From contig CP136061.1 of NCBI GenBank assembly GCA_032622095.1, forward strand, positions 231,074,944 to 231,138,943: DNA of 64,000 nucleotides, read 5' to 3'. The notes under the pieces were generated by a model, which searched no databases, was not told the DNA's origin, and saw only the letters and a program-made list of their open reading frames with translations. The DNA comes from Siphonodentalium dalli. Lineage: Eukaryota; Mollusca; Scaphopoda; Gadilida; Siphonodentaliidae. The stretch's first letter is position 1, and every line of letters begins with the position of its first letter. Shown piece by piece: positions 5,421 to 59,047 of the stretch. A program made the translations under genes and the position numbers.

Positions 5421-6020
5421 ATTGCATATTTCGTTGCTCCAATGATCAGTTAATATACAAAACACAATATAAAGTTGCATTACTCTACCAGTTCCAAACA
5501 GCATGAATTGATCTAGAAGACATTTGTGAAAAAATGTTATATTTTCAACTTCCGGTGGCCATTTTGGAGGCCATCTTGGATGGTGAGTTTAAATTTTGGC
5601 TCAAAAATGTGTCATTATGTCTCAGCTTCACGAAAATATATACATTTCTATACATTTTACAAGATTTTCCCGCTATAATTTGCATAAACTGACTTAGGGT
5701 CTGGTCTGAAAAACGGCGGCCATGATGGACGCCATTTTGTCTGGAGTCTACACGGCCACATTTTTTTCTTGTTAACATTGCTTAAAAGTTGAAGGACATA
5801 ATAAGGAACAAAATGAGTGGGGTGAAGTTAAGTCCCAGGGGGGTGCAAGGGTACCCCTGTTAGCTCCCGGACTATATCGATCGAAGAAATCCAATGAAAC
5901 TTACATATCTTGTCAATTGCAGTCCCCGGAGCGTGACGTCATAGGCTGCACCTGCTAGCTATCGAAGAAACTAACATATATAGTCCACTTTCTTTCAGAG
6001 TATGCCACCGATAGTACAGT
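5421..6020. other. Sequence between foldback element and Crypton exon
   Basis: No coding signal was seen. It contains three clustered ggcggccat/ggccattttgg sites near 5550-5580 and 5716-5745, resembling those inside the arms. At 5826-5875 there is a ggggtgcaagggtacccctg phrase echoed near 1500, and part of it (gttagctcc) recurs at 25521. It could be the outer part of the same or a related element. Confidence 0.4.
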
Positions 6021-6192
6021 ACAGTGTATGCCGAAATAAATCACAGAGAAGGCCGATGCATTTGTTTATGTTACATTTCCTATGCATGTACATATACTTA
6101 TATTTCCCTCCCTCAACAGCCACAAGGTTCAAACCCTTCTTGCAAATTTACCAATGCCAAAATAATTAAATTCAATGTATATTCCCTTTCAG

Positions 6193-6754
6193 GTAACAAG
6201 AACTGTCAAGTACTTTCCTTCGAGAAATATATTTCAAGACTGAACTCCGAAATAGAATGTCTGTGGCAAAAACCGAGAGATTCCTTTACGGATGATTCCA
6301 AGTGGTACTGTTGTTCGCCTATTGGGAAGAACACTCTCGGTGGTATGATGGCTAGCATCTCCAAAATGGGGAGATTATCACAAATATACACAAACCATTC
6401 GGTGCGTTCTACAAGTATAACAATTTTGGATCAAGCTGGTCTCGATAGCAGGCATATAATGTGTGTTTCTGGGCATAAGAGTGAAAGCAGTCTCAGGCAC
6501 TACTCAAGCCATGTAAATGACAAAAAGAAAAGAAATATATCAGAAACTGTTAGTCAAGCATTGAATATATACGGAAGCGATGGTAACGATATGGATACAG
6601 TTACACATGAACCCATACCAGCTACCGGTGTATCTCCCACTAACAAGCAGATACATCTGAATATAGCAAGTTCTGCTACAAAGAGCGACTCTGCAAACGG
6701 ATTCAATTTTGCGAGTGGATGCAATGTAACGATAAACGTCTACAATCACAAATG
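6193..6754 (+). CDS. Crypton-type tyrosine recombinase, C-terminal (last) exon
   Basis: This is the catalytic C-terminal part of a Crypton/DUF3504-type tyrosine recombinase, an enzyme family that cuts and rejoins DNA through a tyrosine nucleophile. The exon start is chosen at the acceptor ttccctttcag ending at 6192, because the family-like sequence begins just after it. The frame is open upstream to 6024, but that part has no family character. Visible signatures are a cysteine/lysine start followed by FEKYISRLN, then WYCCSPIGKNTLGGMM, the HxxR box in TNHSVRSTS, and GHKSESSLRHYSS with the second catalytic His and the Tyr. The C-terminal tail ends NVTINVYNHK before a TGA stop; similar Asn-rich tails occur in this family. 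Upstream exons with the first catalytic Arg are not recognisable in the window. The exon is intact, but the upstream neighbourhood is repetitive, so it may be an isolated remnant. It could also be a domesticated relative. Confidence 0.8.
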
Positions 6755-14787: not shown

Positions 14788-15039
14788 TACTTTGTCTCGA
14801 TACCCCGCAATTGTAGAATGGCTGGTGTCACGTGTGCCATGGTAGCGATGGCATAATAGGTGTGCTGCCTTAATATATATGGTGACACTGGTATATCGTG
14901 ATCTATACGTGCTCACCACCAAGCGACATAGTATTCTCATATGTGATATATCATAGTGTGATCGCTCGGGAATTTACTGAGTGTGACAATCCCAAACATG
15001 TGTAAATGCGACATAACAATAAGGCACAATTATATAACA

Positions 15040-15846
15040 CTAGCAGATTACACCACCACTGGCGGGATTGGTCCCTTGGCTTTGGTCGATCCATTAATTT
15101 TTGTTTTTCAAGGTAACCCCGTGCGTCGCTGCCACCGCTGATGCCCGAAATATCGTCCAAGGTCACTTGCGTGTACCCGTGTCAAGGTCATGTTGGGTGG
15201 ACAAAATAACCAGACAAAAATATTTCCCGTCCCGAGTTGACCATACATAAAATATTTCACATCGATGTCACCGCTGACAACCGACATATCGCCCAAGATA
15301 ATTTGTGGATACCCGTTTCAATGTCAAGGTCACATCGGGCGGACAAACTGAACCGACGAAAATCTCCCCCGTCCATTGGAACACCTAAGTACGAAATTTC
15401 GTCTCGATATCCCCAGTTTTGACCTGCCGTATATTTTCACTAAAGTAGATAAACGCTCTTTAATAGCGACGCCTCATATACAAACGCTCATTAATTATCA
15501 CGCGATTAACCCACCAATCACCATTACGGTGGCAGTTGAAGGGTGAAGGAGTGGTCGCACGGGCTCGCGAATGATCCGAGTTCACTGCCTGTGGTTTTTA
15601 TCCTTACACAGCAAGTTTGGGTTCAATCGGCCTAGCAGTTTTCGTCTCGATATCCCCAGTTTCCGAGACGGTCAAATGCCCTATATTTTCACTAAAGTAG
15701 ATAAATGCTCTTTAATAGCGACGCGTCATATACAAACGCTCATTAATTATCACGCGATTAACCCATCAATACCAATTGCTGTGCCAGTTGAAGGGCGAAG
15801 GAGTGGTCGCACGGGCAATCGGTCGAGCCGTTTTCGAGTCTATAAA

Positions 15847-15892
<46 letters not shown>

Positions 15893-15916
15893 GGAAGTCT
15901 CAAAATATATAGTAGA
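15040..15916 (-). mobile_element. Helitron-like non-autonomous element, downstream unit of a head-to-tail pair
   Basis: Read on the minus strand, it begins TCTACTATATATTTTGAGAC at 15916 and ends in a short hairpin (CCGCCAGTGGTGG) followed by TGTAATCTGCTAG at 15040, with T next. A TC start, a 3' hairpin and a CTAG end before T are the hallmarks of Helitrons. The interior has two ~240-bp direct repeats (about 15400-15640 and 15640-15830; shared agtagataaa(c/t)gctcttta), aggtca-rich phrases and a (TA)n tract. No Rep/helicase frame was seen, so it is non-autonomous. Confidence 0.7.
15850..15891. repeat. (TA)n microsatellite
   Basis: About 21 TA dinucleotides near the 5' end of the Helitron-like unit; similar TA tracts sit near this end in other copies. 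Confidence 0.95.
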
Positions 15917-16861
15917 CTAGCAGGTTAGCCCGCCACTGGCGTGGTTGGTCAGAAACATGACAATTTAAAAAAAAAAAAAAAAAAAAATTTTAAATTAATT
16001 TTTGGTTTTTCAATATTTTACCCGATTTGACCTTGAATTGATCATTTTCAAGGTCAAGGTCAGGTCGGGGTCACAATTTAACCCGTTCATGACACTTCCC
16101 GTAGGTAGCAAGTGTGAGCGCAATCGGTTCGAGTCTATAAAGGACACATGCACACATATATATATAATTTGTGGGTACCCGTTTCGAGGTGAAAATCACC
16201 TAGGGCGGAAAAACTGACCAGATCCATTTGTGGGTACCCGTTTCAAGGTGAACATCACCTAGGGCAGAAAAACTGACCCGATCCGCGTTCCTAGGAAGCC
16301 CTGAGTATGTAAGAATCACACAACACGCTCATGTCTGTATAATGACGCAATGTAGACAGTGCCATTCGCGGTGATTTTGATGATTGGGAGTGGAGAAAGG
16401 GTGCTCAGAGCTTCTCCAAAACGCGACAACTACGGTGTCCGTGGGATTTTACCCTTAGATAGGAAGTTTGAACTCAATCGAGCATGCGGAGAGCACGCAA
16501 AATATTGTTCCCGTATATCTCTGCGTTGCGTTGAATTGCAAACAAACGCTCTTTTTATAGCGACGCGTCATATACAACGCTCATTAAATTATCACTTGAT
16601 TAACCACCGCAGTGCCGTTCGCGGTGATTTTGATGATTGGGAGTGGAGAAAGGGTGCTCAGAGCATCTCCAAAACGCGACAACTACGGTGTCCGTGTGAT
16701 TTTACCCTTATATACGAAATTTAAGCTCGATCCGACCAGCCTTTTTCGATACTTACCCTTATATACGAAATTTGAGCTCGATCCGACCAGCCTTTTTCGA
16801 TTCTATAAAGTACACATATACACACACATATATATACGGAAGTCTCAAAATATATAGTAGA
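15917..16861 (-). mobile_element. Helitron-like non-autonomous element, upstream unit of a head-to-tail pair
   Basis: On the minus strand it begins TCTACTATATATTTTGAGAC at 16861 and ends GCCAGTGGCGGG...CTAG at 15917. The next base starts the following unit's TCTAC with no spacer. The interior holds two ~245-bp direct repeats (16359 and 16612 onward; gtgattttgatgattgggag), a 48-bp tandem pair near 16706-16801, a poly-A tract at 15967-15987 and aaggtcaaggtcaggtcggg. There is no coding capacity. The flanking base before the TC is G rather than the expected A. Confidence 0.7.
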
Positions 16862-17534
16862 CAACGCGTTAAGTAGAACTCAACCGCCCGCGAAACGGGT
16901 TATGGTGTTCATGCAGAGAAATTCTTGATAGTATCGATATGCCAAGAATCGTTTGCACCCCTACTGGCACATCCTACGTCTCTGACATTTGATCCAGGCT
17001 GTCTTTACTATTTAATTGTCTGGAAAATACTTTTTTCCTAATTATTGAGTTGTTATTTCCATAATATCGTATAATCTCATTTTGGTTGGGTGACTGAAAT
17101 TCTTGTTTTCCAAAATATCGTACAACTATTTGAACTGTTTGGAGACATGTCCTTGGTGGTCAGAGTACTCAGAGTATTGGATATCGAACATAACAAATGC
17201 AAAGCGCGAGAACCTCATACCCGTTCTGATACGCACAAGGGAAGCACGATAATCCAGCTTTAATGTTTATCATACGACTTTCTGGAATTAAACAAAAAAA
17301 TTCCGCCACTATTCCGAAACCTCGTATGGAGAAAAACGTACGTCGAAAATGGGTGACATGTCAATAAAAAAAACATTTAAAAAAAAAACCTCTTATTTCA
17401 TGTCTCTAACCGTAGTGGGCATATTCCCTATTGTGTGAACTTATATATATATATACCATTTTTGTTATTATGACAACACATTTGAGATTTATTTAGTTTT
17501 TGCTTCTGCTGTAAATTCGCAACAAAACAAAAAT
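16862..17534. other. Unassigned AT-rich sequence
   Basis: No gene, RNA or repeat could be recognised apart from short A- and TA-rich runs near 17367-17390 and 17443-17456. Confidence 0.4.
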
Positions 17535-19264: not shown

Positions 19265-19767
19265 AACTTTTCACGTGCCGAGGTCAAATCTGTTTTTACG
19301 CCGTTTTGCGCTAATATATTTCAGTTCGGTGCTCACAAATCGATTGCCAGTCATATAATTTGCACGGTTAGAATATGTGGCGCTTCATCTTTCCAATGAT
19401 GTATCACACGCCTGTGTACGTTTAAAGTTTCTACCTTAATTATCGGGAAGAACGCAGGACCATGCTTCGCTCATCGAAAATCATTGCGTAAATATATTAC
19501 GCCATCAACATATCGTGACGTGTTCGCGTTTAACTCATAACCGGCCGATGTCGCGTTAACTCATCACCGGCCGAGGTATCCGCAAATGTTATTGGGCTAT
19601 ATATCTCGAAAACGGGTGGAGCTATCGACTTGAAATTTGGTATGTGAATGTATCTTGCCCCGGATACGAATTTTATCGGGTCGCAGACCAGATCTCGGAA
19701 ACGGGTGGAGCTATCGACTTGAAATTTGGTTTTTGAATAGCCCGGACAAAGTCGGGTCACCTTCTAG
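19265..19767 (+). mobile_element. Helitron-like element, 5'-truncated upstream unit
   Basis: Parallel to 19922-20413 from cttttcacgtgccgaggtca to the 3' terminus. The end is a small hairpin (cccggacaaagtcggg) followed by tcaccttCTAG at 19764-19767. Its own 5' end is missing. An internal duplicated module contains ggagctatcgacttgaaatt twice. No coding frame. Confidence 0.65.
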
Positions 19768-20413
19768 CTATTATATATTTTGGAAGATCTGTTTGTTTGT
19801 GTGTGTGTGTGTGTAATCGATGAACTCGAAAACGGCCGACCCGATTTCGATGAAACTTGGTATGTGGGGGGTATTTTCGGGTCAGGAGTAACATAGGCCT
19901 ATTGATTTTCAGATCCGAGGTCAACTTTTCACGTGCCGAGGTCAAATCTGTTTTTACGCCGTTTTGCGCTAATATATTTCAGTTCGGTGCTCACAAATCG
20001 ATTCGATATAGCGCGAATAATAAATTGCCAGTCATATAATTTGCACGGTTAGAATCTGTGGCACTTCATCTTTCCAATGATGTTTCACACGCCTGTGTAC
20101 GTTTAAAGTTTCTACCTTAATTATCGGGAAGAACGCAGGACCATGCTTCGCTCATCGAAAAACATTGCGTAAATATATTACGCCATCAACATATCGTGAC
20201 GTGATCGCGTTAACTCTTAACCGGCCGATGTCGCGTTAACTCATCTCCGGCCGAGGTATCCGCAAATGACATTGGGCTATATATCTCGGAAACGGTTGGA
20301 GCTATCGACTTGAAATTTGGTATGTGAATGTATCTTGCCCCGGGAAACGGGTGGAGCTATCGACTTGAAATTTGGTTTTTGAATAGCCCGGACGAAGTCG
20401 GGTCACCTTCTAG
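19768..20413 (+). mobile_element. Helitron-like element, complete-looking downstream unit
   Basis: It starts directly after the previous CTAG with ctattatatattttggaaga, a variant of the TCTAnTATATATTTTGGGAC start seen at 28612 (the leading T is absent). A (GT)n tract, gatttcgatgaaacttggta and the same body as the upstream unit follow. It ends cccggacgaagtcgggtcac then cttCTAG at 20410-20413, with T next. It is non-autonomous. Confidence 0.65.
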
Positions 20414-28611: not shown

Positions 28612-29132
28612 TCTAATATATATTTTGGGACTTCTGTCTGTTTATCTGTTTATATGTATGTCTGTTTGTTTGTCTGTTAGCAATAGCCGGGAAAACTGCC
28701 GGACGGATTTCGACGAAATTTTATACCTAGGGATACTTTCGTCCGGGGAGTGTTTAGGACGGGTCAAATCGTGACCCCGACCTGACCTTCAAAAAGGTCA
28801 ATTCAAGGTCAAATCGGGTAAAACGGACGGATTTCGACGAAATTTTATACCTAGGTTACTTTTGTCCGGGGAGTTTTTTGGGCGGTTCAAAACGTGACCC
28901 CGACCTGACCTTGACCTTCAAAATGATCAATTCAGGGTCAAATCGCGCCTTTCGCCGGAAAGCAGAGGGGAAACAGCCCGGACGAAGTCTTGTCCGGGGA
29001 GTGTTTTGGACGGGTCAAATCGTGACCCCGACCTGACCTTGACCGTTAAAATGGTCAATTCAAGGTCAAATCGCGCCTTTCGCCGGAAAGCAGAGGGGAA
29101 ACAGCCCGGACGAAGTCGGGCTCACCAGCTAG
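28612..29132 (+). mobile_element. Helitron-like non-autonomous element
   Basis: Starts TCTAATATATATTTTGGGAC and ends in the hairpin cccggacgaagtcggg followed by ctcaccagCTAG at 29129-29132, with T next. The interior is two to three modules of roughly 130 bp built from ggatttcgacgaaattttat, gtccggggagtgttt, gaccccgacctgacctt and ggtcaattcaaggtcaaatc. No Rep/helicase frame. Confidence 0.7.
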
Positions 29133-38099: not shown

Positions 38100-39722
38100 A
38101 TGCGGATGTGAAATAGAGCATGTACATCAGTTACCGACGTTTTATCGGCGTCCTCATTGATAATATTCATGAATTATTACTATCATCACTGCATGTCGGT
38201 AATATTTGAGATTGCGTGGTATAAGCTTTCCACAAACAATACGTACTGCATACTACAAAGTCTGTGAATGAGTCAGCTTCATCAATTAAATCAAATAACT
38301 CCGGTGGACGTGCAGTGAGAAATACATTCAATTGCACATCTGGGCAAAGGCTGTCTAGTTTGAGAATACATTGAATATTGAACTGGTTCATTAACTCATA
38401 CCATATGTCGTTTCGATATTCCGCAATGGCGGTGCAGTTTATGATGACGTGTTGAGGGAGATCATCGTAAGCAACACCACATTTGTTGCAAGTTACAAAC
38501 ACGGACTCAGTACAAGCCATGATACCGGCCACAGTCAGGTATGCTATTTTGTGTCTAGGGAACTTTCGACAGCAACGCCACAAATGGGAGACTGATAACT
38601 GTGGGTGTATAACATGAAAGCGACTGAGTGATTTGTCACCGATCACCGCGCTTTTCCATCCGTGTTCTGAATATTCAGATATTGCCTTGCGCACTATACT
38701 TTTCCATGACGACTTTGTTGGGAATTCACTTTCAGAAACATAATTTGTAAAATACGACATCAACTGGTGGTTACCCAGAATATTTGCAATATCGGAAATG
38801 AAGGAATTTCCCGAAACCCCATCTATGAAGAACGAGTGCAGCCTTAATAAAAAAAACCGATTTGGCTGCCTTCTCAGTTGTGAGGGCGCATAGACTTCCG
38901 AAGAAGAGAAGCTTCTTTTTTTCAATAAAACTGTGAATATTACCTATTCCCAGCAACCCTTCTATAATGTTGGTCCGTGTTTTGGAATGCAAACCTTGGA
39001 TCTTTTTAAGGCAAAATCGGTGAGTTCTTTCCAGGGATAATACATCTGAATCGGTCAAGCCACATAGCAGTTCGCATCCAAAGAGACCTTTTGGCAATAT
39101 TATAGATGTATAGATTGTCCTACTGCTGACTGGTGTTATACCTCCAGCATACATACCGATGTTGGACATAGCAAAATAGCTTGACCTAAGCTTCTGTTTT
39201 ATTTCGTCAATGAATTCACCGTTTTGATTATGCTTATGTATAGGGACACCTAAGTGTGTAAGACTTTCAACTTCAGATACCTGTTTCCCACACAGAGTCC
39301 ATGCCCTGTTAGTACTCGTCTTATTGTGCTCATTTTTACTTTCATTAAAGACAATAACAACTGACTTTTGTTCATTATATCGATACCTCCATTTTCGACT
39401 GTAATTGGTGCATATAGTCAGTAGCTGCTGAAGACCTTTTTCCGAAACAGAGAGAAGTGTCATGTCATCAGCTTGTGTTGGGCATGAACAGTTTACAGAA
39501 TACATATTCAGCCCTGCTCCCGAGTTTGCCAGTTCTACCAAAAGTTGGTCAACAAAGAGCATGTAAAAAAGAGGTGAAATAACGCCTCCTTGTTTTGTTC
39601 CTTGCTCTATTTGAAATTGCCTGGACTGGCAATCTCCGTATTTTACGAAACAAGAGGTACCTTTAAGCATCTGATGAAACAGTAGCCATGATTTTCCACC
39701 AAAGATCAGTCCGGTCAATACA
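38100..39722 (-). pseudogene. 5'-truncated LINE with reverse transcriptase and zinc knuckle, one frameshift
   Basis: The minus-strand frame from about 39720 to 38850 carries reverse-transcriptase palm landmarks: QGTKQGGVISPLFYMLFVDQ, then CPTQADDMTLLS where 'YADD' is expected, then ESLTHLGVPI and a thumb. Reading then switches frame at a run of eight A (38849-38856) and continues to the stop at 38167, with CNKCGVAYDDLPQHVIINC, a Cys/His zinc knuckle typical of LINE C-termini. Apart from that one shift the ~510 codons are open, so the copy is not very old. Substitution of the Tyr of YADD by Gln and the missing upstream catalytic box and endonuclease make it inactive. The 3' UTR contains a hairpin, accgacgttttatcggcgt, at 38132-38151. 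Confidence 0.85.
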
Positions 39723-42176
39723 ATTGAAAATAATCATCTAACTTGGAAGGGATCGTCACACAAACTTTAACCTAAATTCCAAAATATGAAATAGATAACA
39801 ACCAAGGCACAGTGTGTATGCCTTTTTCGGATATATGCTACTAAATGTACTTTCTTCGGATTTGTATCACTTTTGACCAAAAATACTGATCACATGTGTA
39901 CAAAATCTATTAATAAAGGGTTAAATTTCGACAAATGAATAAGTGAACTTAACCACGCGACTAACCAATGATCTGAATTTGTTATTCAGACCAAAACAGC
40001 TATTTAAAATTCATATGTATACAAATAAACGCCATATCTCTCATATTTTGTGTTAATATTTCGTATAGGCGATAACATGTACTCATACTTAAAGTACCTT
40101 AACTATATCCAGGAGCAAATGTAAAATGTCCCAAACCAGTTTCAATTTAGTCAATTAGTTAAGTATTTGACTGACATGGGAATTAGTGTTTAAACAAGAA
40201 TAGAGCAAAATGCGAAAAAGTTATAGAGTGAAAACGTAGAATCAGGCGCGGAGGCGTCATGACGCGATGAGATACATTGAGCAACATAATAAAGAAAGTG
40301 AATGGGCGCAATTAAGTCCTGTGGCGCACAGGTGCCGTTACAACACACATACTAAGATGCATGGTGGTAGCTAACATCAAAGCGAGAGCATGCACCATCG
40401 AGCAGGGGTCAATACTATGAAACTTTTTCTTTGTAAGAATCTACAATTGTTTGTAAGAAATAACAATTTATCATTCCGCCAATACTATGAACCTACGATT
40501 ACAAACATAAATCACAAATAGTACGTGTTCTTTGTATTTACAAATATCTCCAATCACAAAGAATGTTCGAGTACTATGAAACATAATTTTTCAGTTTTCG
40601 CACCCTTAACACGGATAATATATATATCTATGATACGCAGGGACGTGGCGACAAGGGGTCGATTCACCCCCTCGGGAAAATATTTTGTCAGCTGGAAATC
40701 TCAAGTACAACGCACAGGGACGTCGCGACAAGGGGGTTGGGTTATGTTTCTCGCTCCAAACATTTTATCAACACGTTCAACAGCTGGAAATTTGATACCT
40801 GAAACAACATGAATTGGAAATTTTACAACAACAATAGGTTGAACTTGTTCTGTTATTTTGTTTTTTCCAACAATTTATTAGCGGGTATGTTTTGTTTTAG
40901 ACCAACATTTGCATATTTACCTCCTTTGGTCAAAAGTTTGGATTGAAATGGCCTATATTTAGAAATTGTCAAACCTTATGGTGTGTCAGCTTGGGTGTGA
41001 TGTAGCAGTATGTGTTCCTTGTAACTACTGAAATTACCCAATTTATTGAAAGTTACAACGTTAAGAACTTGTCTAGAATGTCTATATAGGGTGTCAAACA
41101 TAAATTGTCGATTTTCACATCCTTAAACCAGAGCATATAACCATCTGATTCGCAGGGATTTAGCCCCCTTATGAAAATGTGTTATCAATGGAAATCTCAT
41201 AAACAGGGACATGGCGATAGTGGTCTTGGGAACACGATACCTGGCACATTACAGCTGTTCAGAATAGGATGGAGAGAGTAGCCGCCAAATCGTATGAGTC
41301 ACAACATCTCTGACAAAAGTTAGTGATTAATACAAATAGTGAGTGATACTTGCGGATTATAGCCAACATTAGCATGTAACATGTACTTACCATAATCAAT
41401 GATATATCCAAGAATGGATAAAAATGACGCGTGTTCCCAATGTGAGTATGATTTTTCGCTCAAGAATGCATGGCGGATTATCCTTTGAGTTTCAATCGTC
41501 GACGCGAATGCATTTGGTCACGGTAAAGGACGCGAATACGAAGATGCAAGCACAGTTTTCATAAATGACTAGAGCATAAATGCAGTGACGTGGCAAGATG
41601 CTCTTTTTTTTTCGAAACGTCGATATCCAACTGTGTATCCCCACCCCTCAATTATAAACAATTATAAAATTGTTTACCCCGGTTGGCTTCTGATTTTCAA
41701 GCTGTAACAGTAAGTTGTGCACCCCCACCCCTTGGATTGGACATATTGACTAAATATGACTAACTTAGTGTTAGTCACAAACGTTTTGAGTAACTTTGGT
41801 CAATTATTGGAATTATTTGCACATAATTCAGCAACTTTAATTTACGCCTTCCAATTGACTAAGAAAAGTCCCCATTTCTTAGTCGTTATGACTAACATCA
41901 CCCTAGTAATTTTGATTAATGTTATGCCTCAGTCATGTTGGCTGAACTAAGTCAGTCATCCTGAGGTTTTGTTTTGTTATCAACGTAGAAAAATTAAAAT
42001 ACTTTCCTCTTGATATACGATTCCATCGTTATATGGAATTTATAGGGATTTTTTTGTTCAAAGGGTGCATATGGAAATTATAGGATGGACACCCCGTCGC
42101 CAAACTGAGCCCATATAGCCACGTCCCTATCTAGATATATTATAAGATATCGGAGCAGTTTGAAATTATAAAATGA
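39723..42176. other. Unassigned sequence with scattered AGGGACGTGGC motifs
   Basis: No gene was supported. The phrase cagggacgtggcgac or a variant occurs near 40637, 40711, 41208 and, reversed, near 42113 and 42503, with ggaaatctca nearby, suggesting a decayed interspersed repeat. A 95-codon frame at 40525-40812 overlaps these repeats and has no family character. Confidence 0.4.
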
Positions 42177-58326: not shown

Positions 58327-58549
58327 TCTAACTGTAACTATCACAATGTGGTCAAGGAGCCGGTTCCAATTATATCCATATGTGTATGGTTCTAATACCG
58401 TTCTATTGAGACGGACCGAAGATATTTTAGGATGTTGAAGCTTTATTTGGCCGGTTTTGTCCGGTTTGTTGGGTAAACCATTAATACATAAACATACCTG
58501 CCGAATCGGCGACAAGTAATATCAGTACGACAATAACCTCCATCGTATT

Positions 58550-58754
58550 CAGCGTTCTGCGTCACCATATATATACACGTATGTTGTTTTCAGCGTTCTG
58601 CGTCACCATATATATACACGTATGTTGTTTTCAGCGTTCTGTGTCACCATATATATACACGTATGTTGTTTTCAGCGTTCTGTGTCACCATATATATACA
58701 CGTATGTTGTTTTCAGCGTTCTGTGTCACCATATATATACACGTATGTTGTTTT
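58550..58754 (+). repeat. 41-bp tandem repeat, five copies
   Basis: Copies start cagcgttctg(c/t)gtcacc at 58550, 58591, 58632, 58673 and 58714, each continuing atatatatacacgtatgttg. Only one C/T position varies between the first two and last three copies, so the array is young. The open frames through it merely translate the repeat. Confidence 0.97.
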
Positions 58755-58795
58755 CAAAGATCATCACTCCAATTGTGTTTTCGAAACAAACTAAG

Positions 58796-59047
58796 TTACG
58801 ATGAGTTTCCGTAAAATGTACACCCTGATTCCTCGCATGATGTGTCCTCGAGACCTTCCCGTGGCACATTGCAAAGAGTTGCCACCAACACTGTCTTAAG
58901 GGTCTTTTTCATGAATTCATTTGACGCGCCATTGGTAGTATAAATGGTTCGTAAATCGATGAAGTAATTTCCCATATCCGCTCTGACCAGGAGAGCGAGC
59001 ATTTGCGAATTAGGAACAAAACAGGATATTGAATTATAAGCAACCAT
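58796..59047 (-). CDS. Small open frame of unknown nature
   Basis: An 83-codon minus-strand frame starts at an ATG in acceptable context (A at -3, G at +4) and ends with TAA. Its composition looks more protein-like than other short frames here: it has balanced residues, a NYFIDLRTI stretch, and Cys residues near the end in TSCEESGCTFYGNSS. No family was recognised, there is no clear promoter or splice signal, and it adjoins a young tandem repeat. It may be an exon, a decayed element gene, or chance. Confidence 0.2.
   Translation of the reverse strand: MVAYNSISCFVPNSQMLALLVRADMGNYFIDLRTIYTTNGASNEFMKKTLKTVLVATLCNVPREGLEDTSCEESGCTFYGNSS

What the first reader, a model, noticed from the sequence alone, without database searches (positions are those of the whole stretch)
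15040..16861. Two Helitron-like elements joined head-to-tail with no spacer
On the minus strand, the CTAG end of one unit (15920-15917) is followed immediately by the TCTACTATATATTTTGAGAC start of the next (15916), with no host base between them. The units differ in interior sequence but share termini. This is what a rolling-circle or circular-intermediate mechanism that failed to stop, or precise end-to-start insertion, would leave.
Basis: partly seen in the sequence, partly recalled or inferred. Interest (0 to 1): 0.7.

Follow-up and report, generated by a model that had tools for sequence, protein, structure and literature searches.

The report
Jumping genes stacked head to tail
The window holds two small Helitron-type jumping genes joined exactly end to start; the same kind of joint recurs thousands of times in this genome, probably because the front end of a resident copy looks like the spot where new copies like to land.

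Summary
Confirmed: on the minus strand a 945-bp unit (16861-15917, TC...CTAG) abuts an 877-bp unit (15916-15040, TC...CTAG) with no base between. It is no one-off. In the 2.23-Gb genome 670 of 1,249 exact 25-nt 5' starts are directly preceded by CTAG, and 4,670 of 7,416 exact 3' ends are directly followed by TCT. The joint is not internal to one longer repeat: 32 sampled joints show 29 left/right combinations, as random joining predicts, and 3 of 40 neighbouring pairs are 90% or more identical over 80%. That disfavours simple rolling-circle read-through as the main source. Where a 3' end meets host DNA the flank tends to T-N4-TATAWA, about 97-fold over background, in register with the element's own start (TCTAC-TATATA). 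Best explanation: a resident's 5' end mimics the preferred target, so newcomers land directly in front of it; some arrays expand later by exchange or concatemers. The motif alone does not explain the excess. Tandem Helitrons are known: new variant of a known kind. Autonomous partner, growth direction and cause of the excess are inferred.

The parts
15917..16861 (-). Unit 1, short Helitron-like element, 945 bp, TC...CTAG; carries a 123-bp and a 59-bp internal direct repeat
15040..15916 (-). Unit 2, short Helitron-like element, 877 bp, TC...CTAG; carries an internal direct repeat of about 160-177 bp (87%)
15916..15917 (-). Zero-base head-to-tail joint CTAG|TC; the exact 29-nt joint occurs 670 times in the genome
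16842..16861 (-). 5' terminal sequence (left end) of unit 1, TCTACTATATATTTTGAGAC; preceded by G at 16862
15897..15916 (-). 5' terminal sequence (left end) of unit 2, identical 20-mer; its first 11 bases TCTAC-TATATA match the host target motif T-N4-TATAWA in register
15931..15941 (-). 3' palindrome CGCCAGTGGCG of unit 1, 14 nt from its 3' end
   Evidence: 54 of 200 shuffles fold as well
15054..15064 (-). 3' palindrome CGCCAGTGGTG of unit 2
   Evidence: 11 of 200 shuffles fold as well
15028..15039 (-). Host flank at the 3' end of the array, T-GTTA-TATAAT, fits T-N4-TATA
19768..20413 (+). Last unit of a second tandem pair in the same window, 3' end CACCTTCTAG, host flank T-ATAT-ATATATA
19265..19767 (+). 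5'-truncated unit directly before it (about 87% identical); joint CTAG|CTATTATATATTTTGG lacks the T of TC
28612..29132 (+). Solitary related element, 521 bp, TCTAATATATATTTTGGGAC...CACCAGCTAG, host flank TTAGTATATATA

Best explanation
These are short Helitrons that cannot encode a transposase themselves. Shown: they join 3'-CTAG to the 5'-TC of other, often unlike, family members at zero spacing thousands of times, and where they enter host DNA the site tends to T-N4-TATAWA immediately 3' of the insertion point. Inferred: the transposase recognises T-N4-TATAWA as the place to nick and join; because the element's own left end (TCTAC-TATATA) presents the same motif in the same register, a resident's 5' end is itself an acceptor, and an incoming circle or single strand is joined exactly in front of its TC. 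Each newcomer exposes a new 5' end, so stacks grow, mostly at the 5' side. Motif frequency alone predicts about 2 hits where 670 are seen, even if 20,000 insertions are assumed, so something more must raise the rate; the most likely reason, I think, is that the transposase already binds and nicks resident left ends when it starts transposition. Some arrays are later expanded by unequal exchange or concatemer insertion.
For: Recurrence: 670 of 1,249 exact starts preceded by CTAG; of 7,416 exact 3' ends 4,670 are followed by TCT and 2,605 by T plus a non-C base, together 98.1% starting with T. In the 60-end sample all 31 flanks beginning TCT were element starts and none of the 21 host flanks began TCT. 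Independence: 34 exact joints fall into 19 left and 13 right clusters; without two higher-order-repeat duplicates, 29 combinations among 32, with 3 pairs sharing both sides against 2.2 in shuffles, p = 0.37. At least three unlike 3'-end types are joined to the same start. Neighbours unlike: 3 of 40 pairs at 90% or more over 80% or more. Target: TDNNNTATAWA in 775 of 2,605 flanks against 100 of 32,620 window positions, 97-fold; TATA at +4..+8 in 18 of 18 distinct host flanks of the C1 sample and 16 of 19 from joint-bearing loci, against 2,672 of 39,608 window T positions; for a second 3'-end subtype 12 of 14. Polarity: the 5' unit has the closer relative elsewhere in 27 of 39 pairs, p = 0.024, or 24 of 35 after I took out four repeats of one array by hand, p = 0.04; the subtype ending AATCTGCTAG abuts another element in 6 of 20, AACCTGCTAG in 39 of 60, p = 0.009.
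Against: Motif targeting alone falls short by a factor of about 300, so the nicking step is a guess. The 5' outer base is A in only 16 of 26 starts that the script scored as non-joint (5 of 12 and 11 of 14), and G in the window. Of the 39 joints in the C1 sample 7 carry a short spacer or lack TC (read by eye). Neighbours are more alike than non-neighbours (13 of 40 against 17% aligned over 80% or more; 3 of 40 against 1.4% at 90% or more), and homogeneous arrays exist (3.9-kb higher-order repeat in L039). The age proxy is weak, and the subtype difference could be targeting rather than age. No empty sites were compared, and the one locus that looked like a split resident (L140) became ambiguous once TCTATC proved to be a common native start. 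Sampled loci are mostly the first listed, on C1.
Confidence: 0.6

Rival explanations
1. Rolling-circle read-through: replication fails to stop at CTAG, runs round again and lays down a head-to-tail concatemer in one event.
For: [quoted passage not shown] near-identical units exist at C1:158.16 Mb, three of 1,116 bp with 0-7 differences; neighbours are somewhat more alike than non-neighbours.
Against: A concatemer has identical neighbours; here 27 of 40 pairs align over less than 80% of the shorter unit and 3 of 40 are 90% or more identical over 80%, and different 3'-end families are joined to the same start.
Confidence: 0.17
2. A circular element (ends joined CTAG-TC) recombines by homology with the shared terminal sequence of a resident, giving a precise joint without transpositional integration.
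For: Helitron circles with exact head-to-tail joints are documented (PMC4778049; PMC13286980); the window units share 46 bp at 91% at the left end.
Against: It does not explain why the left end has the same register as the host target motif, nor why 3' ends as unlike as types A, B and C all take part, although shared left ends could still serve as the homology.
Confidence: 0.12
3. Local segmental duplication or unequal crossing-over of an older dimer.
For: Higher-order repeat of about 3,927 bp with four unlike units (L039).
Against: It can copy joints but not create the first one, and partner combinations are almost all different among the 32 joints examined.
Confidence: 0.08
4. The joint is an internal part of one longer repeat family.
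For: The 40 best rows of a 251-bp query across the joint all span it (5 further short rows do not), but that query favours such matches.
Against: 579 of 1,249 starts are not preceded by CTAG; 21 of 60 sampled 3' ends abut host DNA; partners vary.
Confidence: 0.02

Closest known systems
Canonical Helitrons (Helitron1), e.g. bat Helibat/Helraiser
   Same: 5' TC, 3' CTAG, short palindrome before the 3' end, T directly 3' of the insertion; Helraiser also prefers AT-rich DNA, most strongly on the 3' side, and makes exact CTAG-TC circles (PMC4778049, passages)
   Different: Here the 3' side shows a defined T-N4-TATAWA motif, and 54% of one exact start and 63% of one exact 3' end lie in head-to-tail joints; the 5' A is not strict
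Tandem Helitron arrays reported in bat, Drosophila, rice, maize, silkworm and plant centromeres
   Same: Head-to-tail arrays, in bat and maize sometimes of distantly related elements directly side by side (PMC5148889, PMC5876387, PMC4067079, passages; in the silkworm paper itself, PMC3789558, the word tandem was not found)
   Different: Those passages favour termination bypass, rolling circle or circular intermediates; here partner choice looks random and a target-mimicry cause is proposed
Fusarium FoHeli self-insertions (Helitron2-like)
   Same: An element inserted 2 bp upstream of another's 5' end, composites with several 5' termini (PMC5148889, passages)
   Different: Non-canonical termini and TNAT|A target; single cases rather than thousands
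IS91 and IS200/IS605 HUH transposons (recalled, no call)
   Same: Target recognition tied to the sequence next to an element end, which can let insertions recur at the same place
   Different: Bacterial, other sequences and proteins; no homology tested

Membership tests
Helitron (canonical) | 5' terminal TC | tested here: met
   Both window units start TC; 1,249 exact starts in the genome
Helitron (canonical) | 3' terminal CTRR | tested here: met
   CTAG at 15917 and 15040
Helitron (canonical) | Hairpin 10-15 nt before the 3' end | tested here: inconclusive
   Palindromes at the right distance, but folding no better than shuffles for unit 1 (54 of 200 fold as well) and for 3' type C (158 of 200), better for unit 2 (11 of 200) and 3' type B (4 of 200)
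Helitron (canonical) | Insertion between A and T, no target-site duplication | tested here: inconclusive
   3' T in at least 98.1% of 7,416; 5' A in 16 of 26 sampled non-joint starts (boundary uncertain where TCTA repeats precede, and L155 is really a joint with a longer start); no empty sites compared
Helitron (canonical) | Rep-helicase transposase encoded by an autonomous partner with the same ends | tested here: inconclusive
   At least 151 Helitron_like_N matches (150 of 457 candidates scored), several in open frames over 1,600 aa, 0 of 14 control genomes; a type-A 3' end lies about 4 kb downstream of the match at C1:58405351, whose open frame is only 261 aa; no complete element was shown
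Helentron / Helitron2 | Insertion within TT | tested here: not met
   3' T yes, but 5' T in only 5 of 26 non-joint starts
Rolling-circle concatemer | Adjacent units near-identical | tested here: not met
   3 of 40 pairs at 90% or more over 80%; met in the one array looked at for it

The most novel reading that the evidence does not exclude
The transposase reads the same motif, T-N4-TATAWA, as its own left end and as its landing site, so every insertion creates a fresh, preferred landing site for any other family member. The left end is a self-renewing docking site, which turns a dispersed transposon into growing mixed arrays and could be a route from Helitrons to satellite-like DNA.
Probability: 0.45. 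Interest if true: 0.68.

Novelty: new variant of a known kind. Interest (0 to 1): 0.5.

Why it matters
Tandem Helitrons have been cited in support of rolling-circle transposition and termination bypass (passages). Here, with thousands of joints in one genome, partner choice in the sample looks random, which points to repeated separate joinings. If the left end doubles as a target mimic, it links two open questions, how Helitrons choose sites and how they form arrays, and makes both testable with an existing laboratory Helitron system.

Tried and rejected
Rejected: a longer single repeat (partners vary, many solo ends). Rejected as main cause: simple concatemers. Tried and set aside: a 'split resident' proof at L140/L139; it looked decisive until the TCTATC start proved to be a common, variable TCTA-repeat start (884 copies; host A before it in 11 of 19 sampled copies). 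Tried without success: the left end of an open Rep frame at C1:13.744 Mb (2 kb upstream fetched, no left end found). Not obtained because the genome server stayed busy: the count of A before the exact start, the count of CTAG|TACTATATATTTTGAGAC, and TCT after the AATCTG end. Paper searches listed nothing that I could recognise as a TATA-type target motif matching a Helitron's own left end, but most listed papers I saw only as titles and abstract starts; I read passages of six papers (PMC5148889, PMC4778049, PMC5876387, PMC3789558, PMC13286980, PMC4067079), and one paper sought by a recalled DOI is not held. The Fisher test printed at the end used a wrong table; one search has the right one. 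In one search the host-flank script was given 13 of the 14 non-joint AATCTG ends; the one left out, L167, begins CCCGCC and has no TATA, so the count in this report is 12 of 14. Correcting these did not change my odds.

Full report
What is there. The window is C1:231,074,944-231,138,943 of an unnamed 2.23-Gb genome in 9 contigs. On the minus strand, unit 1 (16861-15917, 945 bp) and unit 2 (15916-15040, 877 bp) each begin TCTACTATATATTTTGAGAC and end ...CTGCTAG, and touch with no base between. In shuffled sequence the start is expected 0.01 times (up to 3 mismatches) and the end 0 times. The units share the first 46 bp (91%) and short internal blocks, 29% of the shorter unit in all. Outside the array lie G (16862) and T (15039).

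Is it a one-off? No. CTAG joined to the 25-nt start occurs 670 times, with 0 for the reversed control; the start alone occurs 1,249 times, so 54% of such starts are in a joint. The commonest 3' end that I counted occurs 7,416 times: 4,670 (63%) continue with TCT and 2,605 (35%) with T and a non-C base. In a sample of 60 of these ends on C1 (the first listed, leaving out 11 of one dense cluster at 13.716-13.757 Mb), 39 abut another element's start, 32 of them directly at TC and 7 with a short spacer or lost bases, and 21 abut host DNA. The script had called 44 joints; I moved 5 to host by eye. All 31 flanks beginning TCT were joints.

Is it part of one longer repeat? No. At least three unlike 3' ends (GTGGCGGGCTAACCTGCTAG; CGTCGGGCTCATCGGCTAG; GTTGGGTCACCTTCTAG) are joined to the same start. 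Grouping 300 bp on each side of 34 exact joints gave 19 left and 13 right clusters. After dropping two copies from one higher-order repeat, 32 joints show 29 combinations, and 3 pairs share both sides where shuffles give 2.2 (p = 0.37). The window's own left type also occurs joined to two other right types (L004, L023). So in this sample joints formed separately, by near-random partner choice.

Read-through or insertion? Concatemers should have near-identical neighbours. Of 40 neighbouring pairs, some from one higher-order repeat, 13 align over 80% or more of the shorter unit and 3 of those at 90% or more identity; non-neighbours give 17% and 1.4%. There is thus a modest excess of alike neighbours, and a few arrays are homogeneous (three 1,116-bp units with 0-7 differences; a higher-order repeat of about 3,927 bp with four unlike units). 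Both kinds exist, but unlike neighbours are the rule in this sample, which was drawn mostly from loci with the exact window-type start.

Where do they land in host DNA? In 37 distinct host flanks (18 from the C1 sample, 19 from joint-bearing loci) the pattern is T (37), four free bases, then T29 A29 T28 A29, A or T 34, A27. Genome-wide, TDNNNTATAWA follows 775 of 2,605 type-A ends that continue with T and a non-C base, against 100 of 32,620 such positions in the window, 97-fold. A second 3'-end subtype, sampled at 20 of the 100 places listed, has TATA at +4..+8 in 12 of 14 non-joint flanks. A+T is 0.89 in the first 10 bp and 0.65 and 0.64 in the next two tens, which argues against these flanks being worn-down element starts. 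The element's own start, T-CTAC-TATATA, has the same motif in the same register. Limits: background was taken from this window only, some of the 2,605 are truncated element starts, some flanks are duplicates, and flanks beginning TC were counted as joints, so C is missing at +2 by construction.

Mechanism. I therefore favour repeated insertion directly in front of resident left ends because these mimic the target. Shown: precision, abundance, near-random partners in the sample, target motif, same register. Inferred: recognition by one protein, and nicking of resident left ends. Motif frequency alone would give about 2 hits on 1,249 left ends even with an assumed 20,000 insertions, so an extra attraction is required. 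Growth at the 5' side is suggested, not shown: the 5' unit has the closer relative elsewhere in 27 of 39 pairs (24 of 35 with four repeats of one array taken out by hand, p = 0.04), and the AATCTG subtype is joined less often than AACCTG (6 of 20 against 39 of 60, p = 0.009). The second result may reflect targeting instead of age.

Membership. TC and CTAG are met; the 3' palindrome is present but folds weakly in unit 1; 3' T is met; 5' A is found in 16 of 26 starts scored as non-joint. The genome carries at least 151 matches to Helitron_like_N, several in frames over 1,600 aa, so a supply of transposase is plausible. A type-A end lies about 4 kb downstream of one such domain, but I could not delimit a whole autonomous element.

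Literature. Tandem Helitrons, exact circle joints and self-insertion are in print (passages of PMC4778049, PMC5876387, PMC5148889, PMC4067079, PMC13286980). What I did not find in the listings and passages is a target motif matching the element's left end as the cause. I therefore rate this a new variant of a known kind.

Noticed in passing
window 19265-20413 (+): A second head-to-tail Helitron pair (87% identical units, the first truncated) with a different 3' end type; its joint has lost the T of TC.
   Followed up: partly
window 28612-29132 (+): A solitary 521-bp relative with a GCCCGGACGAAGTCGGGC-type 3' palindrome.
   Followed up: partly
window 6015-6752 (+): 246-aa frame with weak matches to DUF3504 and Phage_integrase, below the curated cut-offs: a possible Crypton-type tyrosine recombinase (Crypton link recalled).
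   Followed up: partly
window 38774-39733 (-): Reverse transcriptase fragment (RVT_1, E 9e-13), probably LINE-like.
   Followed up: partly
G000:C1:158.151-158.169 Mb and 171.50-171.60 Mb; L143: Dense clusters of one start variant; three successive 1,116-bp units in L143 differ by 0-7 bases, satellite-like.
   Followed up: partly
L039 (C1:63.813-63.823 Mb): Higher-order repeat of about 3,927 bp made of four unlike Helitron units.
   Followed up: partly
L163 (C1:13.745-13.747 Mb, - strand): The start region of a frame leading to a Helitron_like_N match (1,614-aa open frame) holds eight tandem copies of a 23-residue block; it sits inside a cluster of the 3' ends.
   Followed up: no
L164 (C1:186541650-186541900): A 3' end of the GTCGGGTCACCTTCTAG type, about 3.9 kb downstream of a partial Helitron_like_N match, is joined directly to a TCTATC start.
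   Followed up: no
host flanks of L016, L089, L111: Several host landing sites read TATAAAAGG or TATAAAAAGG, like core-promoter TATA boxes; insertion just upstream of promoters was not tested.
   Followed up: no
window 58545-58797: 41-bp tandem repeat, about five near-identical copies.
   Followed up: no
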